Below, one piece after another: positions 270 to 54,359 of a stretch of DNA of 64,000 bases (position 1 is its first letter; every line of letters begins with the position of its first letter). The notes under the pieces are model-generated. The model saw nothing but the letters and a program-made list of their open reading frames with translations. It ran no database searches and was not told the DNA's origin. The DNA comes from Planctomycetota bacterium. GTDB taxonomy: Bacteria > Planctomycetota > UBA1135. The translations under genes were made by a program, and so were the position numbers. The stretch is from contig JABHIE010000003.1 of the NCBI GenBank assembly GCA_018671175.1, positions 100,560 through 164,559 on the forward strand. Direction: 5' to 3'.

Positions 270-2035
270 GCCGACTCGACCTCACCGGCACCCCCGTCGC
301 GCCTGGTGTAGGCGTTGGCGTGGTTCGAGTAGTGGTCGAGCCAGGGATGGGCCCCAAAGCCGAGCGTCATTTGGCTCGCAAAGATGTCGAGTCGGCGATT
401 GAGCGGCTTGACCAAGCGATGGCTGCGGCCGTCAAAGGCCTTGAGAGTATTCAAACGGCTACTGCGGCTGAGTTGGGCATCCAAGATGCGGCGATTTATG
501 GTGCGCAGATTGCGGTGATTCACGACCCAACAGCGCTCAAAGAAATCCGGCAGTCGATTCGTGAAGATTTGCTCGTGCCAGAGAGTGCGGTGCAGGCTCT
601 CCTAGAGCGTTTGACAGGCCATTTTGAGGCACTTGAGGGCGGCGACATTAAGAACTGGGCCGCTGATTTGCGCGACCCCTGGTTTGCGGTACTGCGTGAA
701 TTGAGCGATGCTGATATTCAGCTCACTCAAGAGACGGATGAAACGGTCATCCTTGTTGCCGAAGAGTTGGCGCCGTCTTTGGTGACTCGATTGCCGCGCC
801 AGCAGGTGGCCGGTATTTTGTGCGCGCGCGGTGGTCGATTTAGTCATGGCGCGGTGGTGGCTCGTTCTTTCGGAATCCCTGCGGTTACGGGGCTAGAAGG
901 CGTCCATCTCAAAGCAAAAGAGGGTGAGCGATGTGTTGTGTTTGGCGAAGATGCGCGTGCGTTACTTGGTGCCCGGGCTTCTGAGGTAAAGAGTGCCCAA
1001 AAGAAATCAACCGAGCACGCGCAGGTGCAGAAAGTGCTGTCGAGCCAAGCTCAAGAAAAGGGGCGTTTGGGTTGCGGGCACCCGGTTTCGATTTTTGCAA
1101 ACATTGAGTCGCCTCGCGATTTGGAAATGTTCGATCGCAATTCGGTCGCCGGGGTTGGGCTTTTTCGCACCGAGTTTGCCTACATGGAACGGCCTGCTTT
1201 TCCGAGTCTTCAAGAGCAGGAAGACCTCTATTTACAGGTTTTGAGGGGGTTTTCGGGTAAGCCCGTAGTCTTCCGTACGCTTGATGTGGGCGGCGATAAG
1301 CCTTTGCGCTATTTCAAGATGCCGAAAGAGGCTAACCCTGCCATGGGCTGGCGCGGCTTGAGGTTGAGCCTTGAGTGGAAAGATCTTTTCTTGGTGCAAG
1401 TCCAGGCGCTTTTGCAAGCTAATGCCATTTCCGCGACTGTAGATGGCGGCATTGCGCGCGTGATGTTGCCCATGGTGACCACTGTCGAAGAATTGCGCGA
1501 AGCGAAAACTTTGTTAAGCGATACGCTTGGTAAAGCCTTTCAGGAGATCGAGTTCGGCATCATGGTTGAGGTGCCCGCAGCGGCCATGGCTCTCAAAGAC
1601 ATGGTGAAAGAGGTCGATTTCGTTTCGGTGGGCACAAACGATCTGGCTCAGTATCTATTTGCTGTAGACCGAGATAACCCATGGGTCGCCAACCTTTATC
1701 AACCCTATCACCCGGCACTTTTGCGCACTTTGCGCTACATCGCAAAGACTTGCCAGCGAGCAGGAGTGCCCTCCTCGGTGTGCGGCGAAATGGCTGGGCA
1801 CAGGGCAGGGGCCTTGTTTCTCGCAGGTGCTGGATTTGACGGCCTCTCGATGGCGCCGCCTTTTGTTGGCGAAATTAAGGCTTTGTTGCGCGAGACCGAT
1901 TTCGAGAGTTTGCGTATTTTGTCTTCTGAAGCGGCCCTCTGCACGACTTCAGGTGAGTCTTTCGGCATGTTGCGGGCTGAGGCCGATCGCGCTTGGGCGG
2001 AAGTCCTCGAAAAGTCGATGGGTGGGCGTCCTTAG
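266..2035 (+). CDS. ptsI: Phosphoenolpyruvate-protein phosphotransferase (PTS enzyme I)
   Basis: First enzyme of the PTS: it takes phosphate from PEP onto a histidine and passes it to HPr. At 589 aa it has the usual length. The phospho-histidine is His194 in [19 protein letters not shown], which matches the family pattern GG-x-x-SH-x-A-x-x-ARS. The C-terminal PEP-binding barrel shows [10 protein letters not shown], the VGTNDLAQY motif and the active-site cysteine in SSVCGEMAG near residue 511. The start overlaps glyS by ATGA. No HPr, HPr kinase or EII gene lies in this window, so it may feed a regulatory PTS elsewhere in the genome. The alternative, PEP synthase or PPDK, is excluded by length and domain order. 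Confidence 0.95.
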
Positions 2036-2063
2036 AAAAGTCGCAAACAAACGCTAGAATTCC

Positions 2064-2093
2064 TTGCATAAGTAGGGGTATTTGTTTCATACT
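2064..2093 (+). promoter_or_regulatory. Candidate promoter for the 2161 gene
   Basis: The 125-bp gap after ptsI holds TTGCAT (2064-2069), 18 bases, then CATACT (2088-2093), an acceptable sigma-70-like pair. It would give a leader of about 60 bases. No terminator hairpin is seen after ptsI. Inferred from sequence only. Confidence 0.35.
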
Positions 2094-2160
2094 GCAAAGA
2101 ACCCCTTGGGCGTGCAACCCCCCGTGCGCCCGCTTCTCAATCTCACATTAGCGGAAACCG

Positions 2161-2895
2161 ATGCCTCACTCAGTCAGCGGAAACGGTCACAGGAAAGGCC
2201 CGTGGTCGCAAGCCGAAATCGACAAATTGATGTCGCGATATGGGCAATGCCCAGATCCTCAACTCGCCCGCGAGTTGAATCGCCCCATTGATAGCGTTCG
2301 TCGCATGGCCAAGCGTCAGTTTTCTGGTGATATGCGCGTCGGTCCGTGGTCGGCCTCCGATGTCATGAAACTTCGTGAGTGCTTCGGCGTAGCGTCGATT
2401 GAAACGCTCGCTTTGGTTTTGCGGCGCTCTTCCAGCGAGATTCAAACCAAAATTGACGACTTGCGTTCCTCCCAAGTCGATCGCAAATGGTCACGGCAAG
2501 ATGTCCAGACGCTCAAGCGTTTTTATGGCACTCGCGTTGACTCTGATTTGGTGGTTATTTTGGGGCGTTCGCCAGAGTCGATTTTGGCCAAAGCCGACGA
2601 CCTCTGCCTCGCCAAAGACAAGGGCTTCCGCCGCCGTAAAGAGGGCGTGGGCACCACCCGCATGCCTCGCTGGTCAGAAGAGCAACTTGAGCTTCTGCGC
2701 GAGATGTACCCTGAGTCTTGCAATCTTGATATTGCTCAGCGACTCAACCGCTCTGAAAAGAGTGTCGTTTCTAAAGCCCACAGTCTTGGCCTGAAAAAGT
2801 CCAAGTTGCGTTTGCGCACCATGGGTCAAGAAAATGTAAACAAGCGATATAAGCCTGAAGATATTGATTTGGCTGAATCGCAACTCGAGGCTTAA
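2161..2895 (+). CDS. Protein with four tandem Myb/SANT-like helix-turn-helix repeats
   Basis: A 244-aa, basic, apparently cytoplasmic protein. It consists of four repeats of about 45-55 aa, each opening with a conserved Trp-Ser and an acidic/Leu helix, then a helix with L-x-R-S/P-x-x-S/I: GPWSQAEIDKLMSRYG (res. ~13), GPWSASDVMKLRECFG (~62), RKWSRQDVQTLKRFYG (~109), PRWSEEQLELLREMYP (~165). The second halves are similar (ELNRPIDSVRRMAKR, VLRRSSSEIQTKIDDL, ILGRSPESILAKADDL, RLNRSEKSVVSKAHSL). This spacing resembles Myb/SANT or GcrA/transposase-type HTH units, so DNA binding is likely. No effector domain is visible. It is followed five bases later by the DUF971 gene. The target and exact role are unknown. 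Confidence 0.6.
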   Translation: MPHSVSGNGHRKGPWSQAEIDKLMSRYGQCPDPQLARELNRPIDSVRRMAKRQFSGDMRVGPWSASDVMKLRECFGVASIETLALVLRRSSSEIQTKIDDLRSSQVDRKWSRQDVQTLKRFYGTRVDSDLVVILGRSPESILAKADDLCLAKDKGFRRRKEGVGTTRMPRWSEEQLELLREMYPESCNLDIAQRLNRSEKSVVSKAHSLGLKKSKLRLRTMGQENVNKRYKPEDIDLAESQLEA

Positions 2896-2900
2896 CCTTC

Positions 2901-3200
2901 ATGGATATCTCGCTGACCGGCATCCAACGGTCTGATGGTGGCATCCGTTTCGTTTGGTCTGATGGCATCGATGGCGTTTTGATGCCGCGTACTTTCCGTT
3001 TGGCTTGCCCCTGCGCGCATTGCATTAGCGAAGTCACGGGCAAGGCTTTGCTTGAGCCGGGTTCTGTCCCCCAAGATATCGAGATCAAAGACATGCAGCC
3101 CGTCGGGAATTACGCGTATAAGGTTTTATTTTCAGATGGCCACGATTCCGGGCTTTACCCACTCGAGCTGCTTGCTTCCCTGACCCACACATCCACATGA
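2901..3200 (+). CDS. DUF971 / gamma-butyrobetaine-hydroxylase-like N-terminal domain protein
   Basis: A 99-aa protein that matches the small DUF971 fold throughout: an N-terminal strand around IRFVWSDG, then LACPCAHCISEVTGK with three cysteines that may bind metal, then the C-terminal VGNYAYKVLFSDGHDSGLYP with the conserved DGHDSG-Y motif. DUF971 stands alone in many bacteria, often next to iron-sulfur or Mrp/ApbC genes; its biochemical role is unsettled. Five bases separate it from the Myb-like gene, and its stop overlaps the next start by four bases (ATGA), so it sits inside a translation-coupled operon. The family assignment is good; the function is unknown. Confidence 0.75.
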   Translation: MDISLTGIQRSDGGIRFVWSDGIDGVLMPRTFRLACPCAHCISEVTGKALLEPGSVPQDIEIKDMQPVGNYAYKVLFSDGHDSGLYPLELLASLTHTST

Positions 3201-3610
3201 GCCCAGCCGCACAACTGCTTGCCGCATACCTTGATTATCGCTTGGTCGGCCTAGCGTTGTTTTTCGGATGGTGGGCAATTTGGTTTACTCTTGGGCGCAA
3301 TTTTGGTCGCACATCTTTGCTTTGCGTTCTCGCTAAGGGCGTTTCCTTGTTAGCCGCATGGGGCGTTTTTGCATCGGGTGCTTTTGGGGTTACGCTGGCT
3401 TCATCTCAAGCTGAGATCTCGCACCCCTCTGCTAGCGCCCTGATGGTTTCAGGCGTTTTGTTTGCTTTAGTGTTTTTGGGGCTCGAGCTTTTGGTCTTGC
3501 GGCGCGTGATGCGCAAAGATCGACCTAAGTGGGGCTGGAACACTTACGACTTGCGCGTCATGGCGACGGTGCATGCCATCCATGTCGCATCGGCCGTCTG
3601 GCTTGTTTGA
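3197..3610 (+). CDS. Small integral membrane protein, unknown function
   Basis: 137 aa with about four hydrophobic segments (roughly residues 15-33, 42-65, 82-102 and 118-136), joined by short basic loops such as RRVMRKDRPKWGW. I recognise no catalytic motif. It starts on an ATGA overlap with the DUF971 gene, and the GT-C-like gene begins at its stop, so the three are probably co-transcribed. It could be an accessory to the following glycosyltransferase; that is inference from position only. Confidence 0.55.
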   Translation: MSPAAQLLAAYLDYRLVGLALFFGWWAIWFTLGRNFGRTSLLCVLAKGVSLLAAWGVFASGAFGVTLASSQAEISHPSASALMVSGVLFALVFLGLELLVLRRVMRKDRPKWGWNTYDLRVMATVHAIHVASAVWLV

Positions 3611-5436
3611 TTTTGCTGCACACTTTTAAAAAGCGTGAATTGATTTGGGCGGCACTTGGCTACGGCCTCGTGACTTTCCTCTACTACTGGCCGATGGTTT
3701 TTGAGCTCGACGCCGTTTGGTCGGTGGGGCGAGATTATTTCCAAAACAACTGGAATTTTTGGTGGGTCGAGCGCGCGGCCGAGCAGGGGCGCAGCTTTTA
3801 CGACAACGACACGCTATTTGCGCCTACCGGCACTTCGCTGGCTTACCACACGATTAGTTTTGCCAATACGATGCCCGCTTTGGCCGCCATGAAGATTTTT
3901 GGTTGGTCGCCGCAATTCGTGCATAACCTTTTCTTCTTGCTTGCTTTTCCCGCGGCAGGTTTAGGCGGTTGGGCTCTAGCTCGTTTTGTAACTGGCTCGG
4001 CTTGGGGCGCGTTTTTTGCTGGCCTACTTTATAGTTTCAACCCATATCACGGGGCGATGATTACGCAGGTGAACAATATTCAATTTCACTGGATCCCGCT
4101 TTTTTTGCTAGGGCTGCTGTTGCTTTACCGCGATGGAAAAACCTGGCAGTGGGTCATGACAGCTTTCTTGCTGGCAGCGGCTGGTTATGCCGATTGGTAT
4201 CAACCCGTGTTCTGCGTGATGGCGGGCGGTGTTGTGCTTCTAGTCAAGATGCTTCTCGGTAAGCGCCTTTTCGATTTTGGGCTTTGGGGCAAAATCCTGC
4301 TGATGGGTGGGTGTTCCGCAGTCTTGATGCTCCCCGGCGTTTATGAGCTCATTGGCCTAATGAGCGAAACGGGCGGTGGCGAGCTGGCTGAGCCGTTTCG
4401 GTTTGTCGGTGCCATGCAATTGCTTGGAATCGCTCCACAAGGCTCACCTTTCTATCACTTCTGGCCTGTTTTCTTCGGCTGGACGACCTGCATCCTCTTG
4501 GCTCGCACGGCTTGGCGCACTCGTGTCGCCGGGATTTCCGCCTGGTGGTGCTTGGCGGGTTTGGCATTCTTGCTTTTGCAGGGGCCCTATCTCGTGGTGT
4601 TAAATCATCATTTTCCTCAAATCCCACTGCCGCTGACATTTTTTTCAAAGATCCCCATCCTTGATGTCTTGCGCGTGCCGCACCGGTTTTTGATTTTGCT
4701 GCTTCTAGCCTTTGCCATGCTCCTGTCTTGGGGTTTGCAAGATTGGCTCGCCCAACGGAAACGATGGCTCGTTTTGATTTTCTTCGCAGCCTACGCTTTT
4801 GAAATGCGTCCGACACCTAAGCAGCCTATCGATTTGCAGCCTGCTCAAATTTATGCTTCTATGGCGCAAGACCGTGACGATTACACGGTGCTTGAGCTGC
4901 CGCTTGACTACCGCGATGCCTATTCGATGTATCTGCAACGCTCTCATGGCAAAAAGTTGGTCGCTGGCTACACTTCGCATATTTTGCCTTCAGCGATTGG
5001 GCATTTAGAGAGCAGCTTGATGCGCTCGCTGCATCCTGCTGTGGTTGATACTGATATCCTTGGCTTGCCTCAGCACATCCGCCTTAATCTTGAAATTTTG
5101 TCTGAAAAGCAACTTGAGCTTTGGCGGGAAGAGCTCCTTGAGGCCTTGGGTGTACGGGTTGTGGTTTTTCATCACGGTCCTGATTTTGAGCCACCTCAAA
5201 TCGAGGTGCCTGATGTCGATCTGGGCTTTAAGTTGTTTGTCTCTTTGGCGCCATATGCTCTCAACGCATATGCCAATAACACGAGCCCCTTTCAGCAAGT
5301 TGGCGCTGCTCGTTTTCAGACTGAGCTGGCGAAACAATCATCGCAAGCGCGTGAATTGATTGCGGCACTCTTTGGCCCGCCCAATGCCGTTGATGGCACG
5401 ACCGAAGTCTGGGATTTGCGTAACCGAACTTTTTAG
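3607..5436 (+). CDS. Polytopic membrane protein, GT-C glycosyltransferase-like
   Basis: About 609 aa with roughly ten membrane spans in the first two thirds and a soluble C-terminal part. The first large loop has D-A-V-W-S and NNWNFWWVERAAEQG, then FAPTGTSLAYHT, which resembles the acidic catalytic loop and the FxPxG-x-x-x-x-xH pattern of GT-C / YfhO-like lipid-linked sugar transferases. It likely adds sugars to a cell-envelope glycan from a polyprenyl donor. The reading frame extends back to an ATG at 3529, but that would overlap the upstream gene by 82 bases; TTG at 3607, touching the upstream stop, or TTG 3613 are better starts. It converges on the sulfatase-fold gene with a four-base stop overlap (TTAG). 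The substrate is not predictable. Confidence 0.6.
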   Translation: MILLHTFKKRELIWAALGYGLVTFLYYWPMVFELDAVWSVGRDYFQNNWNFWWVERAAEQGRSFYDNDTLFAPTGTSLAYHTISFANTMPALAAMKIFGWSPQFVHNLFFLLAFPAAGLGGWALARFVTGSAWGAFFAGLLYSFNPYHGAMITQVNNIQFHWIPLFLLGLLLLYRDGKTWQWVMTAFLLAAAGYADWYQPVFCVMAGGVVLLVKMLLGKRLFDFGLWGKILLMGGCSAVLMLPGVYELIGLMSETGGGELAEPFRFVGAMQLLGIAPQGSPFYHFWPVFFGWTTCILLARTAWRTRVAGISAWWCLAGLAFLLLQGPYLVVLNHHFPQIPLPLTFFSKIPILDVLRVPHRFLILLLLAFAMLLSWGLQDWLAQRKRWLVLIFFAAYAFEMRPTPKQPIDLQPAQIYASMAQDRDDYTVLELPLDYRDAYSMYLQRSHGKKLVAGYTSHILPSAIGHLESSLMRSLHPAVVDTDILGLPQHIRLNLEILSEKQLELWREELLEALGVRVVVFHHGPDFEPPQIEVPDVDLGFKLFVSLAPYALNAYANNTSPFQQVGAARFQTELAKQSSQARELIAALFGPPNAVDGTTEVWDLRNRTF

Positions 5437-46720: not shown

Positions 46721-47707
46721 ATGGATAGCTCCTTGCCCACCTCAACTCCCGAAGCTTTGCCAAAAGGCACGCTTGCCAAACGCACCTTGCTCTGGGGCCT
46801 TGCCGTCATCATCATGATCTCGGCTGTGATTTATCAAAAAACAACGGGCCCAACTTACCCGCGCAAGGGCTCATTTGAGGTCTCGGGCGAGGTTCACAAA
46901 TACCGCCTCATTCGATCTCAATGGACGCACTCCAAAGATTTTGATTTTGACGCAGAGGTGGCGCTGCCCGCCGTTGAGGGCGTAAGTGGTACTTTGTTCT
47001 GGCGCCGCTACAAGGCGGGCGATGATTTCGCATCCATCCCTATGGCGGTGCGCCTTGAGCAGGGCGGCGATAAAAATGTACTCGCTGCCGATTTGCCCAA
47101 GCAGACTTTTGCAGCGGCCAAATATGAGTATTACATTGAGTTGCAAACGCCGCAAGGTTTGGTCCGCGTCCCTGAAATCGATGTCGCCGCCGCGGTTGAT
47201 ACCGATGGGCCGCCTGCTGACAATGTCGTGATTCGTTTCAAAGATTGGGTCCCTGGTTACATTTTGTGGCCACACATCGTGCTGATGTTCTTCTCCGTTC
47301 TATGGGGTATGCGCACTGCTCTTGCTGCTCTCGCGGGTCACTCTAATTTCCGCCGCTACGCCTGGGTGACTTTCACGGGCATGACTTTTGGCGGAATGGT
47401 TCTCGGCCCGATTGTGCAAAAATATGCTTTCGGCGAGTTCTGGACGGGTTGGCCTAATGGTTATGACCTGACCGACAATAAGATGCTCATCATGTGGGTG
47501 TCTTGGATTGTGGCAACTTCCACAATCGGCCTTAAGCCGCGCCCGAAAGAGAGCGTAGGGCGTGGTGTCGTTGTTCTTGCTGCCTTGGCGATGACTGCCG
47601 TTTATCTGATTCCGCACTCTTTGAGCGGTTCTGAGCTCGATTACAGCAAAATCGAAGACGGCATGACCGCCGAAGAAGCTGTCAAGGCAATTGGTACGGG
47701 CGACTAG
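46721..47707 (+). CDS. Membrane protein of unknown function (328 aa)
   Basis: Not recognised. One N-terminal membrane span (~23-40), a periplasmic beta-rich domain (~45-175: EVHKYRLIRSQWTHSKDFDFDAEVALP, GTLFWRRYKAGDDFASIPM), then four more spans (~187-205, 215-240, 255-275 and 285-305), and a short cytoplasmic C-terminus with a helix (MTAEEAVKAIGTGD). The periplasmic part looks like an Ig-like or cohesin fold. It is followed nine bases later by a small membrane protein, so the two are probably a complex. Confidence 0.5.
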   Translation: MDSSLPTSTPEALPKGTLAKRTLLWGLAVIIMISAVIYQKTTGPTYPRKGSFEVSGEVHKYRLIRSQWTHSKDFDFDAEVALPAVEGVSGTLFWRRYKAGDDFASIPMAVRLEQGGDKNVLAADLPKQTFAAAKYEYYIELQTPQGLVRVPEIDVAAAVDTDGPPADNVVIRFKDWVPGYILWPHIVLMFFSVLWGMRTALAALAGHSNFRRYAWVTFTGMTFGGMVLGPIVQKYAFGEFWTGWPNGYDLTDNKMLIMWVSWIVATSTIGLKPRPKESVGRGVVVLAALAMTAVYLIPHSLSGSELDYSKIEDGMTAEEAVKAIGTGD

Positions 47708-47716
47708 AGTTTTTCA

Positions 47717-48172
47717 TTGTTCGAAACGGCTCAAGCACACCTTTTGCTCGTCCACCTTCCGGTGGTCGGCGGCTTCTTTGCACTGCTCACTCTCGCGGTC
47801 GCGCAATGGCGCAAAGACGAAACCATCTGGAAGCTCGGTATTTTCTTCCTCTTGCTTTGCATGTTGGGCTCGGTCGGCGCTTACTACACCGGCCCGACTG
47901 CGGTCGATGCCCTGCGCCACGCGATCGGAAGCCAGGCCGATGCCATGCAAGACGCAATTGAGCTACACGCCGTTTGGGGCCGTGGCATTTTCGTCGGATT
48001 TATTCTCGTGTGCGTCTTAGGCATCCAGACTTGGCTGCAATCGGCGCAGGGCTTGAATCCTTCGGTTGTATTAAAGGCTGCGGTCATACTTGGCCTTTGC
48101 ATTGCACTTGCCGCAAGTGGCTGGGCCGCTCATCTTGGCGGGCTGATTCGGCATGCCGCCGAGTTGGGCTAA
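47717..48172 (+). CDS. Small membrane protein, DUF2231-like
   Basis: 151 aa starting at TTG 47717. Four membrane spans. HLLLVHLPVVGGFFAL near the N-terminus and AAHLGGLIRHAAELG at the end contain paired His residues on opposite ends of the bundle, as in DUF2231-type haem- or metal-binding membrane proteins. Similarity is by pattern only. Four-base stop overlap (CTAA) with the ZnuA-like gene. Confidence 0.5.
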   Translation: MFETAQAHLLLVHLPVVGGFFALLTLAVAQWRKDETIWKLGIFFLLLCMLGSVGAYYTGPTAVDALRHAIGSQADAMQDAIELHAVWGRGIFVGFILVCVLGIQTWLQSAQGLNPSVVLKAAVILGLCIALAASGWAAHLGGLIRHAAELG

Positions 48173-49116
48173 TGGTCGAGCGCGGCCTCTAAGCGAGCAA
48201 GATTCGCTCGCATAAGCTCGAAATAATCTCGTTGCTTTGTGATGTCATCTTGGCTGCGCATTTCGACCGGAGAAAACCAAACACTCGGAATACCAGAGCG
48301 CGTTAATTCTTTTTGTGTCGCCAAGAGCGGTTGACTTTCCCAAAGGATAAGACACTTGCCATTAGGCGTGCTCGTCGTGGGTGCTGCTGCACTTTTCAAC
48401 TCATTAAGTGTTTCAACACTCAACGGGGTATCAGGGTCGAGATCGAAATTAGTGATACGCCAGCCGTATCGTTTTGCAAGGTATTGATACGCAGGGTGAG
48501 AGCAGAGTATCTGCATCGAATCCATTCTCGGGGCTAGCGCTGCGAATGCGCGGTCTAATTGTTCAAATTGATTTTCGAGAACCTCGTGACGCGTTTGGAA
48601 GATCTCAGTTTGTTCCGGCCAACGCACCACAAAGGCCTCTAGGATGGCGCGCGCTTGCACACCTGCCAAAACAGGGTCAAGCCAAGTGTGGCCATCTAAC
48701 CCTTCATGTGAATGCTCTCCCTGCCCGCCGTGGCTATGGCTGCGCAAACCTTCGATATGCAAAAAGGCCTTTTCGAAACCTGCAGCGGTGTCAATCAGGC
48801 GGCTTGGAGGTAGCGAGGCCGTGCTAAGCCAGCGTTCGAAACCCGCGCCGTTGGTGATGATAAGCGCGGCGTTTTGATAATCCAGAATGTCTTTAGCGCT
48901 TGGCTGCCAGAAAATCGGGTCGGCGTCATGTGGAAGCGGGCAGACGATTTCGAGCAAGTCTCCGGCGATGGCTTCTGCAAATGCAGTCGTTGGGTAGAAA
49001 GTTGTGTAGACCGTTTTTGAATCAACATTTGCGGGAAGCATTTGCGGAGACAATTCGGATCGAGAACAACCCAAAGCGATCATCAAAAAACAAAAAATGA
49101 AAGGGAATGTTTTCAT
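48169..49116 (-). CDS. ZnuA/TroA-type metal-binding lipoprotein
   Basis: 315 aa. Lipobox IALGC anchors it. Cluster A-I substrate-binding protein: ligand motifs LPHDADPIFWQPSAKDI, the His in GHTWLDP (~147), SHPAYQYLAKRYG (~208) and the C-terminal ESQPLLATQKEL. A His-rich loop (RSHSHGGQGEHSHEG) before the second ligand is typical for zinc capture. Last gene of a four-gene minus-strand operon; its ATG overlaps the permease stop by four bases. The usual partners ZnuB and ZnuC are absent, replaced by an FtsX/LolD-type pair. Confidence 0.82.
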   Translation of the reverse strand: MKTFPFIFCFLMIALGCSRSELSPQMLPANVDSKTVYTTFYPTTAFAEAIAGDLLEIVCPLPHDADPIFWQPSAKDILDYQNAALIITNGAGFERWLSTASLPPSRLIDTAAGFEKAFLHIEGLRSHSHGGQGEHSHEGLDGHTWLDPVLAGVQARAILEAFVVRWPEQTEIFQTRHEVLENQFEQLDRAFAALAPRMDSMQILCSHPAYQYLAKRYGWRITNFDLDPDTPLSVETLNELKSAAAPTTSTPNGKCLILWESQPLLATQKELTRSGIPSVWFSPVEMRSQDDITKQRDYFELMRANLARLEAALDH

Positions 49117-50300
49117 AAGGTCTGCACCAAATCTGGAAGAAGTTGAATCGCAATTTGCACGCCCAAGAATGCCAAGCCGGCCGATGCTAGAGCGACAAAA
49201 GTTAGTTCGTAGAGATGCAGCTTAATCGTCGCACTGCGACTGCAGCCAATGCGATGCAAAGTAGCCATTTCGCGGCTACGAAGTTTTGCACTCAAGGTAA
49301 GAACTAGCGCGGTCAGCAACCCAGTAATCAGGAAGAGCACTCCAGAAAAAGCGTCGAAAAAAGTTTTTAAGCGAAAAACAAAACTCATCAAATCACTCAA
49401 GACTGTATGAGGAGAAACGAATTGCAACACGCGGGATTGCTCAAAACGCGTTTTCGCCAGAGTGGTTGCTTTCGCCCATTCGGCCGCGTCAACACCCTTT
49501 GCGGGCGAAATGATTGCACCATGCAGAGGGCGTGCGTCTGGGTCTAGATGGCTATGGAAGGAGGCCAGATTTTCGGAAGTGACTTCGCGGTATTCAAGTA
49601 GTGCTTGGCTAACAACAACCTGATTATCGGTTTTGCCAAGAACGAGTTTTGGTTTAATCGTCTCGGTGTCATCGTGCCCATGTGCAAGCCCATCAAGGAC
49701 CCAAGCCGTGTTGATGCTAACGAAAACGGCATCGTCGTCTGGCGTGTTGGTCGCGGGCAATAAACCGCAAACACGCATTTTAAGTGCGGGCGGTTTGGAG
49801 ATATCGTAGAGCTCGCTAGGGTCGCTAAAAAGTGCGTCTCCAACTTTCAAATCTAAGGCAGCGGCAACCTTGGCGCCGAGTAAAACATCACCGAGTATGA
49901 GTGGTGGAGTGCCCTGTTGTGGTGCAAGGTTATGCAGCTCAAAATACTCAGGAGTCGTCCCGCAAATGGCATAACCCCTTGCAGTGTGTGCTAAATGCAA
50001 CGGGATGACAACGAAGTCATTATCGTTTCTCAAAGCCGAAAGCTCACCCCAGGAAAGGGTTTCAAGCTCGGCGCGGCGGAAGTAAAGAGCATTGAGTGTA
50101 AGGTCAAACCGCGAGCCTTGCGCGCCAACCAAGAAGGGTGTGCTTTCTCCGCGGGCGGCTAAATTGACTTGATAAGCCGAGGTCAAAGCGGTCGTGGCGC
50201 TTGGCAAGAATCCAGTTAGGGCAAGACATCCAATCAAAAGCAGCGTGCGTGCTTTGTGATAACTCAAATGCCGCCAAGCCAACAATTTGAGGCCCTTCAT
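49113..50300 (-). CDS. ABC transporter permease, FtsX/MacB/LolC type
   Basis: 395 aa: an N-terminal membrane span (ARTLLLIGCLALTGFLPSA), a ~220-residue periplasmic domain, then three C-terminal spans with LTALVLTLSAKLRSREMATLHRIGCSRSATIKLHLYEL, the FtsX-like core where the mechanotransmission helix begins. Such permeases do not form a channel for small ions in known members; they extrude or shuttle lipoproteins, peptides or signals, so the pairing with a metal-binding lipoprotein is unusual. Four-base overlaps with both neighbours. Confidence 0.82.
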   Translation of the reverse strand: MKGLKLLAWRHLSYHKARTLLLIGCLALTGFLPSATTALTSAYQVNLAARGESTPFLVGAQGSRFDLTLNALYFRRAELETLSWGELSALRNDNDFVVIPLHLAHTARGYAICGTTPEYFELHNLAPQQGTPPLILGDVLLGAKVAAALDLKVGDALFSDPSELYDISKPPALKMRVCGLLPATNTPDDDAVFVSINTAWVLDGLAHGHDDTETIKPKLVLGKTDNQVVVSQALLEYREVTSENLASFHSHLDPDARPLHGAIISPAKGVDAAEWAKATTLAKTRFEQSRVLQFVSPHTVLSDLMSFVFRLKTFFDAFSGVLFLITGLLTALVLTLSAKLRSREMATLHRIGCSRSATIKLHLYELTFVALASAGLAFLGVQIAIQLLPDLVQTL

Positions 50301-50956
50301 CGCGAAGACCCCATATCAATTACCTGTGCAAAACGCTCAAGCAAGCCGTGGTCATGCGTAACCATGAGCAATGTCGCACCATCTTTTGCGACTTGCTCAA
50401 ATAGCAAATCCATGGCCGCCAATTTTGCCGAGGGGTCAAGATTGCCCGTCGGCTCATCACAAATAACCAATTGCGGTTTGGCAATTAGCGCTCGACAAAT
50501 AGCCACGCGTTGCCGCTCGCCTTGAGACAACTTTTCAGGACGCCGTTGCAGCGTATGTGCGACACCCATCCGCTCAGCCAAATTCTGTGCACGCCCAAAA
50601 TCACTAGCCGCTGGCGATTGCTCCGCCAAATGAAAGGGCAGCAAAATGTTTTCAAGCGCAGTTAAGTAACCGAGCAGCTCAAATTGCTGGAAGACCATCC
50701 CGATTTTGTCGAGCCGGAATGCCCGTCGCGCCGAGTCGCTGAGAGTGCTGATGCCGACACCGCAGACTTCGGTCTGACCACTGCTTGGTGTCAAAATCCC
50801 GGCGATTAAATGAGCAAGTGTCGTCTTGCCGCACCCGCTCGGCCCAATGACAACGGTGTGCTGACCCAACTCAATGTGTAGAGATGCAACGAACAACTCA
50901 AACTCACCCTCGCCATAAGCGAATCGCAAGTCGGCCGCGCGGACTAAAGTCGTCAT
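50297..50956 (-). CDS. ABC transporter ATPase, LolD/MacB type
   Basis: 219 aa. Walker A GPSGCGKTT (38-46), Q-loop FQQFELLGYLTALENILLPF, signature LSQGERQRVAI (~143), Walker B LVICDEPTGNLDP and the H-loop VTHDHGL. FELLGYLTALENILLP and DEPTGNLD are typical of the LolD/FtsE/MacB group. It drives the FtsX-type permease encoded next (four-base overlap). Two bases separate it from the upstream membrane protein gene. Confidence 0.9.
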   Translation of the reverse strand: MTTLVRAADLRFAYGEGEFELFVASLHIELGQHTVVIGPSGCGKTTLAHLIAGILTPSSGQTEVCGVGISTLSDSARRAFRLDKIGMVFQQFELLGYLTALENILLPFHLAEQSPAASDFGRAQNLAERMGVAHTLQRRPEKLSQGERQRVAICRALIAKPQLVICDEPTGNLDPSAKLAAMDLLFEQVAKDGATLLMVTHDHGLLERFAQVIDMGSSR

Positions 50957-50958
50957 GT

Positions 50959-52266
50959 TTAGAGTGTCTCAGGGATGGGCTCGGATGCAACCCGGAACTG
51001 TTCTAGCGTAGTCGATTTTTGAATACGCCATTGATCAATGCGTTTGCCATCTGCGCTGAATCGGCCGACAACTGTGTAGTAGGCGCGGTATTCGTTGAGT
51101 CGTGTATGCGCATGGCCCCAGTGATGAACCGCGCCTTCAACACGCCAGCGCGCGTCGACATCGAAACGCGGATTTGTTGCATCATCAATTTGGTTGGCCA
51201 CAATTTGAAAAGAAACAGGGATGACGGCCTGCACGCGGCTAACTGCACCGCCTTCTTCTCGCATGACGAGCCCTTGATAAACCTGAGCGTAAATTTCATT
51301 GAGTAAATCGCCTTCGACCGATTGTTCAAGGGCGTCGTAAATGTCGCTCTCTTTGGTGTAGTCAAAGGCGCGGTAAATGTTGGCGTGCAGAGGCTGGAAA
51401 ACAGTCAAGGCGCGTTGATCGCTCGATTCGGCTTGTTCGACTCGACCCGTCTCAAGCGTGTCGCGGAACTCAGGCGTTGAGATTGAAAACGCCGAATCGA
51501 GAGTTAAAGAACCCAGCCCAACAAGAAACAAAATGGGTACCCAAATCGTGCCGGGTTTCTTTTTCACGCGGCGACGAATTTCGATGAACGCCCCAAGCAG
51601 CAAAGCACTTACGGCCAATAGATTGATGCTTGAGCTTCCTGAAAAAGAACCTTGCTGGCTATTAACTTTAAGAATAGGCACGGCTTCAAAACGCGGCCCA
51701 ACGCCATCGCGTGGCCTTTGCCAGGAATACTCAGGCTCAAGGGTCGTGAACTCAAGATTCGTATCTTGGCCGTAGGCGATGAGTAGGCCGGCAACATTAA
51801 GCGGGTTGTCGCCTCGGCCTTCGTCTTGAATCCGGTCGGGTGGAAAAGAGCTCCAATGAAAAACGACTCGGTCAGGCGGCGACTTTGTGGAATAGGTGAA
51901 AGAAAGAGTGAGTTGAGTTAAAGCTCTCGCACCAAAGCCCGGAAATAGGGGAAGCAAATCTCGTTTGGGCAGGGTCAGGTGCATCTCGCCCGGCGCACCC
52001 GACACATGGATGCCGTCAATGGTGACGCGGCTAATGTCTGCAAAATAATCAATCAATGCAGCGCGAATCCCGGGCATTTCGACTGCGTCGACAAGCTCTT
52101 CGTCTTCGCGTGCGACATCGATGACCTCGTCGAGGAAGGCTAAATTGCAGGTCACTTCGATGACGATTTGTTCGTCTTCGATGAGCAGCAGCAGGCTGGC
52201 ATCTGGCCCATCTTGCGGATGGATGAACAAGGTGCAAACAAGAAGAAAGAGTGCGCGTAAAAGCAT
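50959..52266 (-). CDS. Exported membrane protein of unknown function, first gene of the ABC operon
   Basis: 435 aa. A signal peptide (LLRALFLLVCTLFIHPQ) and two central membrane spans (~220-235 and 245-262) divide it into two periplasmic parts: an N-terminal beta-rich part (LLLIEDEQIVIEVTCNLAFLDEV, GEMHLTLPKRDLLP) and a C-terminal part with YRAFDYTKESDIYDALEQSVEGDLLNE and a DARWRVEGAVHHWGHAHTRLNEY segment rich in His. Not recognised. Its operon position two bases before the ATPase gene suggests an accessory to the metal-linked transporter. Confidence 0.55.
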   Translation of the reverse strand: MLLRALFLLVCTLFIHPQDGPDASLLLLIEDEQIVIEVTCNLAFLDEVIDVAREDEELVDAVEMPGIRAALIDYFADISRVTIDGIHVSGAPGEMHLTLPKRDLLPLFPGFGARALTQLTLSFTYSTKSPPDRVVFHWSSFPPDRIQDEGRGDNPLNVAGLLIAYGQDTNLEFTTLEPEYSWQRPRDGVGPRFEAVPILKVNSQQGSFSGSSSINLLAVSALLLGAFIEIRRRVKKKPGTIWVPILFLVGLGSLTLDSAFSISTPEFRDTLETGRVEQAESSDQRALTVFQPLHANIYRAFDYTKESDIYDALEQSVEGDLLNEIYAQVYQGLVMREEGGAVSRVQAVIPVSFQIVANQIDDATNPRFDVDARWRVEGAVHHWGHAHTRLNEYRAYYTVVGRFSADGKRIDQWRIQKSTTLEQFRVASEPIPETL

Positions 52267-52300: not shown

Positions 52301-52308
52301 AGTATACT
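52301..52308. promoter_or_regulatory. Palindromic divergent -10 AGTATACT
   Basis: AGTATACT reads TATACT on both strands, 34 bases from ATG 52266 (-) and 53 bases from ATG 52362 (+). It could be a shared -10 for the metal-transport operon and the M28 peptidase. Leaders here are of ordinary length. Confidence 0.45.
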
Positions 52309-52361: not shown

Positions 52362-54359
52362 ATGAAGAAATCCACACTCGCTCGTTGGGCGGCCGTTGCC
52401 GCTGGCTGTGCTCTTATTTTTGCATTTACCGCTGTGCCTGCCGTGGCCCAAGAGGCCGATGCTCCACAGTTTGAGGGGCCCGTTGCGATTGCGCTGGCCT
52501 CAATGTCTGAAGATGAGCGCGTTTACAACGACCATATCGTGACGCTGGCCAGCCCCTTCATGGAAGGGCGCGTACCCGGTTCGCGTGGCATGGAAATCGC
52601 CACCGAGTACATGGAGTTTTACTTTAAGGCCGCTGGGCTTGAGCCAGGGTTCGACGGCTCTTGGCAGCAGCCTTTTGAATTAGGCGGCGAGCTCGAGCTG
52701 ACTGACCAGAGCTTGGCCTGTGCGGGCGATGCTCTCATCGGCGGCGAGCAATTCAACGCTTTGGGGCTGGGTACCTCTGGCGACTTCAGCGGCGAGGCCG
52801 TTTTTGTTGGCTACTCCATCGAAAAAGGGCAAGACGACTACACCAGCTTCCCCGATGATCTTGATGTCGCGGGCAAGGCTGTCGTGATGTTCCGTTTTGA
52901 GCCTATGCAAGCTGATGGTTCCAGCCAGTGGGCCAAGGGCGGCGCCTGGACGCGTGGCGCAGGTTTTGCTGCCAAGGTTCGTGCAGCAAGCAAGCGCGAT
53001 GCCGCGGCCATTATTATTATCAACCCACCAGATTGCGCAGATCCTCGCGCAAGTGAGTTGACCTCGGCGGGGCAAGGTGGTCGCCGCCGCGCCAATGTCC
53101 CCGTGATGATGGTTTCTTCCGAAGCCGGTGAAGCCATGGTCAAGAGCTTGGGTTGGTCAGGTTCTTTGCTCGACTTGCGCCATCATGCAGACGAGGGCAA
53201 GGCGTCCTTTTCTTTTGCAAACCCCGTTGAGGCTTCATGCAGTTTTGAAAACAAGGCTCTGATTGCAAACAATGTCGGCGGCATTTTGCGCGGCAAGGGT
53301 GAGTTGGCTGACGAATGGATCGTTCTGGGCGCGCACCTCGATCACCTCGGCATGGGCTATTTCGGCTCAAGAAGTGGCCCAGGCGAGCTTCACCCAGGTG
53401 CTGATGACAATGCTTCGGGTTCAGCAGCGGTTTTGATGCTGGCTGACAAATTGGCTAAGTATTACGCCGAATTGCCCGAGGGCGCTCCAGCTCGCTCGAT
53501 CCTCTTTATGGGCTTTAGCGCCGAAGAGTCTGGGTTAAATGGTTCTTTTTATTACGCCAAAAATCCAATCGTTCCGATGAGCGACCACAAGTTGATGGTC
53601 AATTTTGACATGATCGGTCGCGTGAAAAATAAGCGCTTGTCGGTTTCTGGCTCGACATCGGGCGTTGGCATGGAAGACTGGCTTAGCCCGTTTTATGAGG
53701 CATCTTCACTTGAAATCGTCACGCCTGCCAACATGAGTGGCGCGAGTGATCACACCGCTTTCTATCGCAAAGATGTCCCTGTATTGTTCGGCATCATTGC
53801 TGATTTTCATGGTGACTATCACACGCCAGACGACTTGTCCTGGAAAATTAATCGCCATGATGCGGTCGAAACGATTTATCTTTTCCAAAGCATCCTTCAG
53901 GCCGCATCGATTCGCTCTGAGTTGTTTGACTATCAAAAGATTCAAGGCAAAAAGAAAAAGAAAGTTGCCAAGCCACCTACCCCTAATGCTTCAGCCGTTG
54001 CAAAAGCTGAAGCGGCTCTCGAAGCCGCTCGCGATGAAACCGAAAAGCCTCGCTCTGGTGGTCGCATGGCCAGTATGAAAGTGCGTTTTGGCATTGCGCC
54101 AGGTTCCTATTCTGACGAAGGCGAAGCGGGTGTTTCCGTTGGCGAAGTCATGGCTGACACTTCCGCTTCAGATGCCGGAATTCTTGCGGGCGACCGTTTG
54201 ATTAAGTGGTCGGGCAAAGATATCCCCGATATCCAATCCTGGATGACCATGCTCATGGATTGCGAGCCAGGCCAAAAGGTGCAAGTCACTTTAATCCGTG
54301 ACGGCAAAGAAGTCGTGTTGTGGGTGACTCTTAAAGCGCGACAACAACAAGGCCAATAA
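52362..54359 (+). CDS. Secreted M28 aminopeptidase with PA-like insert and PDZ domain
   Basis: 665 aa from ATG 52362, with a signal peptide ARWAAVAAGCALIFAFTAVPAVAQ; an ATG at 52251 is rejected. PA-like domain at ~130-280; M28 zinc domain with GAHLDHLG (His and Asp ligands), HPGADDNASG (bridging Asp), GFSAEESGLNGS (Glu-Glu), FDMIGR and SDHTAFY. A Lys-rich linker precedes a C-terminal PDZ domain (~570-660: VSVGEVMADTSASDAGILAGDRLIKWSG). Hydrolyses peptides in the periplasm; PDZ may bind substrate or partner. Confidence 0.92.
   Translation: MKKSTLARWAAVAAGCALIFAFTAVPAVAQEADAPQFEGPVAIALASMSEDERVYNDHIVTLASPFMEGRVPGSRGMEIATEYMEFYFKAAGLEPGFDGSWQQPFELGGELELTDQSLACAGDALIGGEQFNALGLGTSGDFSGEAVFVGYSIEKGQDDYTSFPDDLDVAGKAVVMFRFEPMQADGSSQWAKGGAWTRGAGFAAKVRAASKRDAAAIIIINPPDCADPRASELTSAGQGGRRRANVPVMMVSSEAGEAMVKSLGWSGSLLDLRHHADEGKASFSFANPVEASCSFENKALIANNVGGILRGKGELADEWIVLGAHLDHLGMGYFGSRSGPGELHPGADDNASGSAAVLMLADKLAKYYAELPEGAPARSILFMGFSAEESGLNGSFYYAKNPIVPMSDHKLMVNFDMIGRVKNKRLSVSGSTSGVGMEDWLSPFYEASSLEIVTPANMSGASDHTAFYRKDVPVLFGIIADFHGDYHTPDDLSWKINRHDAVETIYLFQSILQAASIRSELFDYQKIQGKKKKKVAKPPTPNASAVAKAEAALEAARDETEKPRSGGRMASMKVRFGIAPGSYSDEGEAGVSVGEVMADTSASDAGILAGDRLIKWSGKDIPDIQSWMTMLMDCEPGQKVQVTLIRDGKEVVLWVTLKARQQQGQ

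What the first reader, a model, noticed from the sequence alone, without database searches (positions are those of the whole stretch)
48169..52266. ABC operon pairing a ZnuA-type binding protein with an FtsX/LolD-type transporter
Four tightly coupled genes: unknown exported membrane protein with a His-rich segment, LolD/MacB-like ATPase, FtsX/MacB-like permease and a His-loop ZnuA-type lipoprotein. The normal ZnuB/ZnuC partners are missing, and FtsX-type permeases are not known to carry free metal ions. From memory, Vibrio ZrgABCDE is a zinc-linked system that also uses a MacB-like permease, so this may be a distinct branch of such systems, possibly with the 435-aa protein as a new component. 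The adjacent convergent DUF2231-like protein has paired His residues.
Basis: partly seen in the sequence, partly recalled or inferred. Interest (0 to 1): 0.62.

Follow-up and report, generated by a model that had tools for sequence, protein, structure and literature searches.

The report
Zrg-like metal ABC system, unusual parts
A conserved but uncharacterised four-gene ABC system, found across planctomycetes and in two proteobacterial plasmids, joins a zinc-binding-type lipoprotein to a shortened mechanical (FtsX/MacB-class) membrane transporter and a new membrane protein that sits beside a secreted metallopeptidase gene, which suggests a new way of moving or delivering zinc-like metals outside the cytoplasm.

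Summary
Window 48169-52266(-) is one operon: a 435-aa membrane protein (P435), a LolD-type ATPase, an FtsX/MacB-type permease and a ZnuA-family lipoprotein. The set is conserved: all three transporter genes follow P435 in 36 of 62 named P435 loci with enough flank, and it occurs on plasmids of Methylomagnum and Paracoccus. The permease family is one clade (100/99), apart from LolC/E; it is homologous to ZrgB (profile E 1e-21) but distinct from it. New anatomy: (1) every family permease examined ends before the fourth FtsX transmembrane helix; (2) its periplasmic domain carries HGH and HxH, invariant in 77/77; (3) the binding protein lost the first canonical ZnuA histidine (0/70), while four loop histidines are 68-70/70; (4) P435 has a ZrgA/anglerase-like fold, two membrane helices and an NTF2-like domain with invariant HWGHxH; (5) an M28 metallopeptidase gene is divergent from P435 in 68/71 loci, even where no transporter is present. 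Canonical ZnuABC exists elsewhere in the genome. Best reading: an ATP-driven transition-metal (most likely zinc) capture and relay system, a sister of Zrg. Metal, direction and regulation are not shown; nickel remains possible. New variant of a known kind.

The parts
48169..49116 (-). ZnuA-family (cluster A-I) substrate-binding lipoprotein, 315 aa
   Evidence: PF01297 E 7.7e-39; Cys17 invariant in 30 homologues; encoded after the permease in most loci
48706..48738 (-). SBP histidine loop HSHGGQGEHSH (residues 127-137)
   Evidence: H127, H129, H137 in 70/70 and H135 in 68/70 family members, more conserved than the canonical ligands
49113..50300 (-). FtsX/MacB-type permease, 395 aa, three predicted TM helices (fourth absent)
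   Evidence: PF02687 match limited to positions 3-73/120; ends 51 aa after RxxE344 where ZrgB/LolC/LolE/MacB continue 94-113 aa; AF2 model pLDDT 89.8, Foldseek to MacB 2.8e-11
49674..49682 (-). Permease HGH motif (His207, His209), periplasmic domain
   Evidence: Invariant in 77/77 permeases; absent in ZrgB
49548..49556 (-). Permease HxH motif (His249, His251), periplasmic domain
   Evidence: Invariant in 77/77 permeases; absent in ZrgB
50297..50956 (-). LolD/FtsE-type ABC ATPase, 219 aa
   Evidence: PF00005 E 1.8e-30; NCBIfam LolD best, under its cut-off; Walker A, signature LSQGE, Walker B and H-loop readable in the translation
50959..52266 (-). P435: N-terminal extracytoplasmic ZrgA/anglerase-like fold, two TM helices (212-235, 242-259), C-terminal NTF2-like domain
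   Evidence: No Pfam family; AF2 pLDDT 84.5; Foldseek 9gce 2.6e-5, ZrgA/PA4063 about 4e-5, PARC6/BaiE/Tim44 for the C-domain
51106..51123 (-). P435 HWGHAH motif (His382, 385, 387)
   Evidence: Invariant in 46/46 transporter-linked and 21/21 aligned stand-alone homologues
52362..54359 (+). Divergent exported M28 metallopeptidase with PA and PDZ domains
   Evidence: PF04389 E 9.6e-37; divergent neighbour of P435 in 68/71 loci
46721..47707 (+). TM328: membrane protein with extracytoplasmic domain, convergent neighbour; accessory module, membership likely but not universal
   Evidence: Homologue next to the system in L116/G039 and in L238, L239; found in only 7/151 genomes
47717..48172 (+). DUF2231-like membrane protein paired with TM328
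   Evidence: A DUF2231-like match lies next to TM328 in all six loci with a strong TM328 match
52301..52308 (.). AGTATACT palindrome between P435 and M28, probably promoter -10 sequence
   Evidence: AGTATACT in 7 of 69 intergenic regions against 0.03 expected by mononucleotide shuffle

Best explanation
The operon encodes an ATP-driven transition-metal handling complex, most likely for zinc, of the mechanotransmission (FtsX/MacB, 'type VII') class and sister to ZrgABC. The lipoprotein SBP holds the metal with its conserved four-histidine loop and a reduced cleft. It passes it to the HGH/HxH histidines on the permease's periplasmic domain and to P435, whose N-terminal domain resembles ZrgA and metal-fishing 'anglerase' domains and whose C-terminal domain carries HWGHxH. 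ATP hydrolysis by the LolD-type subunit drives the hand-over by moving the periplasmic domain. The net result is capture and distribution of scarce metal, probably uptake-directed, with the co-conserved exported M28 metallopeptidase as a likely recipient or co-regulated partner. Shown here: gene set, conservation, invariant histidines, missing TM4, relationship to ZrgB, M28 linkage. Inferred: metal binding, zinc as the metal, the relay order, direction of transport, role of M28.
For: Conserved gene set in Planctomycetota and two proteobacterial plasmids. Permease homologous to ZrgB, whose system is needed for growth in low zinc (PMC9820375). Three extracytoplasmic components each carry invariant histidine clusters. 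SBP belongs to the ZnuA family. P435 N-domain matches ZrgA, PA4063 and Cu-Ang-1 by fold. M28 metallopeptidase gene beside P435 in 68/71, and an M28-PDZ gene co-directional upstream in another family.
Against: No expression, binding or transport data. No Zur-type box found. Fold similarity to ZrgA is moderate (TM 0.57 on the target) and has no sequence support (hhalign E 0.33). One canonical SBP ligand is lost and, in some members, several. The Methylomagnum copy lies near NikR and a TonB receptor and the Paracoccus copy between DUF4198 genes, a nickel-binding family (PMC12537917). ABC-3 permeases are not significantly rarer in genomes with the system (12/47 lack them against 18/104, p 0.27). 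Of two studied Zrg systems, the P. aeruginosa one was assigned pyochelin-cobalt export, not zinc import (PMC11481552).
Confidence: 0.55

Rival explanations
1. Periplasmic metallation machine: the complex does not carry metal across the inner membrane but uses ATP to load metal into exported metalloenzymes, above all the M28 peptidase. P435 is the loading factor and the ABC part speeds or powers delivery.
For: M28-P435 pairing in 68/71 loci, including 21/21 that have no transporter; HWGHxH stays invariant there; the permease has only three TM helices and the FtsX class usually does mechanical work in the periplasm; the genome already has ZnuABC for import.
Against: Gene neighbourhood only; M28 enzymes elsewhere need no known loading factor; M28 is not next to the system in the two proteobacterial records or several planctomycete families.
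Confidence: 0.2
2. Nickel or cobalt rather than zinc: the same relay, but for Ni/Co.
For: NikR and a TonB receptor near the Methylomagnum copy; DUF4198 genes on both sides of the Paracoccus copy, a family shown to bind nickel best (PMC12537917).
Against: Two plasmid records only; no such neighbours were seen in the planctomycete loci examined, where the partner is an M28 metallopeptidase; SBP is of the zinc/manganese family; ZrgBC is zinc-linked.
Confidence: 0.15
3. Export or extraction system: a MacB/Lol-like pump that pushes a metal chelate or a lipoprotein out of the periplasm, with the SBP as a substrate-presenting lipoprotein.
For: Permease model is closest to MacB; PA4064-PA4065 was assigned pyochelin-cobalt export (PMC11481552).
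Against: No MacA- or TolC-like gene in the conserved set; invariant histidine pairs absent from ZrgB; TM4 lacking; clade apart from LolC/E.
Confidence: 0.08

Closest known systems
ZrgABCDE (Vibrio) / PA4063-PA4066 (Pseudomonas)
   Same: LolD-type ATPase plus separate FtsX/MacB-type permease beside a periplasmic metal-binding protein; permeases homologous over TM1 to TM3 (hhalign E 1.3e-21); P435 N-domain resembles ZrgA by fold
   Different: ZnuA-family SBP instead of DUF2796 ZrgA; no DUF3299; permease lacks TM4 and has HGH/HxH; P435 has TM helices and an NTF2-like domain; M28 partner; separate clade
ZnuABC / cluster A-I metal importers
   Same: SBP is a ZnuA-family lipoprotein with a His-rich loop
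   Different: No ABC-3 permease; canonical first His ligand absent in 70/70; loop histidines invariant
LolCDE / MacAB-TolC / FtsEX
   Same: Same transporter class, ATPase and fold
   Different: Three rather than four TM helices; conserved metal-type SBP partner; no LolA, MacA or TolC in the set; not in the LolC/E branch
Anglerase (Ang-1) domain of HupE/UreJ-2
   Same: Best fold match of the P435 N-domain; extracytoplasmic metal-binding domain tethered to the membrane (PMC12537917)
   Different: P435 has no HupE permease domain; its ATPase and permease are separate genes

Membership tests
ZrgABC zinc system | DUF2796 ZrgA as metal-binding protein | tested here: not met
   P435 has no Pfam hit and no profile similarity to ZrgA, hhalign E 0.33; fold similarity only
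ZrgABC zinc system | Permease belongs to the ZrgB family | tested here: not met
   Homologous (E 1.3e-21), but the 36 family members form their own clade (100/99) and lack TM4
ZrgABC zinc system | Zur-regulated, needed in low zinc | tested here: inconclusive
   No match to two Zur/Fur-type consensus boxes near the promoter; the planctomycete Zur motif is not known and expression could not be tested
ZnuABC / cluster A-I importer | ABC-3 (PF00950) permease partner | tested here: not met
   Partner is an FtsX-type permease; ABC-3 is on another contig
ZnuABC / cluster A-I importer | SBP of the PF01297 family | tested here: met
   E 7.7e-39
ZnuABC / cluster A-I importer | Three-His metal site in the SBP cleft | tested here: not met
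   First His 0/70; the other two 53/70 and 60/70
LolCDE | Permease groups with LolC/LolE | tested here: not met
   Separate clade, though LolC/E are long branches
Type VII (FtsX/MacB) ABC class | FtsX/MacB-type fold with large periplasmic domain after TM1 | tested here: met
   Foldseek to MacB 2.8e-11 and LolCDE about 1e-8
Type VII (FtsX/MacB) ABC class | Four TM helices per permease | tested here: not met
   All 36 aligned members end 50-56 aa after the RxxE motif; a further 49 loci end 0-5 aa after the profile; AF2 model shows three long membrane helices

The most novel reading that the evidence does not exclude
An ATP-powered extracytoplasmic metal-loading machine: a three-helix FtsX-type ABC transporter that does not import metal but hands it, through histidine pairs on the SBP, permease and P435, to exported metalloenzymes such as the M28 peptidase.
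Probability: 0.2. Interest if true: 0.85.

Novelty: new variant of a known kind. Interest (0 to 1): 0.62.

Why it matters
How FtsX/MacB-class transporters such as ZrgBC take part in metal traffic is unsettled (zinc uptake in Vibrio, pyochelin-cobalt export in Pseudomonas). This family, present in about a fifth of sampled Planctomycetota genomes, couples such a transporter to a classical metal-binding protein, has an unusual three-helix permease, and has named invariant histidines that can be mutated one by one. The near-constant M28-P435 pairing makes the question of how exported metalloenzymes receive their metal testable.

Tried and rejected
Chance or local arrangement: rejected by conservation. 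Permease as plain LolC/E: rejected by tree and tail length. SBP as an unrelated neighbour: rejected. Replacement of ZnuB: tested by ABC-3 co-occurrence, no significant effect (p 0.27). Zur box: two consensus patterns gave nothing near the promoter; AGTATACT in the intergenic region is more likely a shared -10 sequence. P435 as a sequence homologue of ZrgA: not supported. P435 TM hairpin standing in for TM4: considered, but the Methylomagnum homologue appears to lack that hairpin (reading), so not general. Whether the permease's four histidines meet in space could not be tested because model coordinates are not exposed. ZepA (PMC10957091) was checked as prior art and is a different system.
Full report
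The observation. SBP 48169-49116 is a ZnuA-family lipoprotein (PF01297, 7.7e-39). Permease 49113-50300 matches FtsX (9.3e-7), but only profile positions 3-73 of 120. ATPase 50297-50956 is closest to LolD/FtsE. P435 (50959-52266) matches no family. The same genome (2.39 Mb, 89% complete) has a canonical ZnuA, ZnuC-type ATPase and ABC-3 permease together on contig C33, and one Fur-family regulator was found.

Conservation. In 151 genomes of the order, 47 carry a close permease homologue (E below 1e-45, 36-49% identity). Loci around 39 of these show P435, ATPase, permease and SBP in the same order in most, with an M28 gene divergent from P435. In the phylum, P435 is in 87 of 392 sampled genomes and the permease in 82 of 392. 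A scan of named genomes gave 332 P435 relatives; the 80 kept are almost all labelled Planctomycetota, including the complete genome of Planctomycetes bacterium Poly30 (Saltatorellus ferox), with single records labelled Verrucomicrobiales, Lentisphaerales and others. Of 62 loci with enough downstream sequence, 36 have all three transporter genes, 23 have none and 3 have a subset; M28 is divergent next to P435 in 68 of 71 loci with enough upstream sequence, including all 21 testable loci without a transporter. These counts are not corrected for relatedness, but the genes flanking the M28-P435 pair differ between lineages. In another family an M28-PDZ gene lies upstream in the same direction; in two complete genomes the TM328-DUF2231 module takes the place of M28.

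Beyond planctomycetes. A plasmid of Methylomagnum ishizawai carries P435-ATPase-permease-SBP, with a TonB receptor and NikR nearby. A plasmid of Paracoccus liaowanqingii carries the P435 C-domain as a separate 166-aa gene followed by ATPase, permease and SBP, flanked by DUF4198 genes. Profile scores confirm the identities (P435 2.6e-41 and 2e-25, permease 1e-121 and 2.5e-119, SBP 3e-79 and 2e-74).

Permease anatomy. All 36 aligned members end 50-56 residues after the conserved RxxE, while ZrgB, LolC, LolE, MacB and other FtsX-type permeases of the same order continue for 94 residues or more; a further 49 loci end 0-5 residues after the profile. The fourth TM helix is therefore absent, as the AF2 model also shows (pLDDT 89.8). 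Two histidine pairs in the periplasmic domain, HGH and HxH, are invariant in 77 of 77, present in both proteobacterial members and absent in ZrgB. The 36 form one side of a branch with 100/99 support; ZrgB groups with other FtsX-type permeases, and E. coli LolC/E are apart, though on long branches. The profile match to ZrgB is clear (E 1.3e-21).

SBP. Alignment to solved ZnuA-family proteins places the first canonical ligand (the His of the P-H-x-x-x-P stretch in YcdH and AdcA) at a position that is never His in 70 family members, although it is His in the genome's own ZnuA. The other canonical positions are His in 53/70 and 60/70 and Glu in 51/70. In contrast the loop H-x-H-G-x(4)-H-x-H has its four histidines in 70, 70, 68 and 70 of 70. 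In V. cholerae ZrgA the His-rich loop was shown to be dispensable (PMC9820375), so this pattern of conservation is unexpected.

P435. AF2 (pLDDT 84.5) gives an N-terminal extracytoplasmic domain, two TM helices and a C-terminal domain; with a signal peptide, both domains would be outside the cytoplasm (inference). Foldseek matches the protein best to the copper-bound Ang-1 domain (2.6e-5) and to ZrgA/PA4063 (from 3.8e-5), and further down to NTF2-like proteins (PARC6, bile-acid dehydratase, Tim44). Assignment of the two groups of hits to the two domains is my reading. No sequence-level relation to ZrgA was found, so the N-domain is similar in fold, not a shown relative. His382/385/387 are invariant in 46/46 transporter-linked and 21/21 aligned stand-alone copies.

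Mechanism. Invariant histidine clusters on three extracytoplasmic partners, a metal-family SBP and a ZrgB-related ATP-driven permease argue for metal relay. Zinc is the default: SBP family, Zrg link, M28 metallopeptidase. NikR and DUF4198 next to the two proteobacterial copies keep nickel open (DUF4198 bound nickel best in PMC12537917). Direction is unresolved: Zrg supports growth in low zinc in Vibrio (PMC9820375), but its Pseudomonas relative was assigned pyochelin-cobalt export (PMC11481552). ABC-3 permeases are absent in 12 of 47 genomes with the system and 18 of 104 without (p 0.27), so it is not a simple replacement. The stand-alone M28-P435 pairs make periplasmic metal delivery to M28 a serious rival.

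Verdict. A real, widespread and, in the papers searched, undescribed system (only open-licence papers are held). It works like a Zrg-type metal system but fails the membership tests for Zrg, ZnuABC and LolCDE. New variant of a known kind, interest 0.62.

Noticed in passing
window 46721-48172 (+); L116 10519-11882; L238 10759-12215; L191, L192, L194, L195: TM328 and a DUF2231-like protein form a two-gene membrane module of unknown function. It lies next to this ABC system in the window genome, G039, G374 and G322; all six genomes of the order with a strong TM328 match also carry the permease.
   Followed up: partly
window 52301-52308 and the P435/M28 intergenic regions of other loci: A perfect palindrome AGTATACT recurs between P435 and M28, probably overlapping -10 elements of divergent promoters rather than a regulator site.
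   Followed up: partly
L208 (Deinococcus wulumuqiensis plasmid) 966-4765; L210 (Thermus thermophilus plasmid) 934-5041: Alkaline phosphatase, a zinc enzyme, is followed by a small conserved protein (looks DUF3299-like by eye, but the Deinococcus one has no Pfam hit), an ABC ATPase and an FtsX-type permease: another FtsX-class transporter beside an exported zinc hydrolase.
   Followed up: no
L072 / G000 C33, about 1536-5156 (-): The genome's canonical ZnuA, ZnuC-type ATPase and ZnuB sit downstream of a 395-aa exported, His-rich, probably outer-membrane protein that may be a zinc porin.
   Followed up: no
Phycisphaerales-type loci such as L101, L102, L131, L140, L147: A DUF2231 plus cytochrome-c-type protein (family f6) recurs two genes from P435 where the ABC genes are missing; it may only be shared synteny of one lineage.
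   Followed up: no
L238 and L239 (complete planctomycete genomes): In these genomes P435 is predicted as a longer protein (about 650 aa) with low profile scores; the extra N-terminal part was not examined.
   Followed up: no
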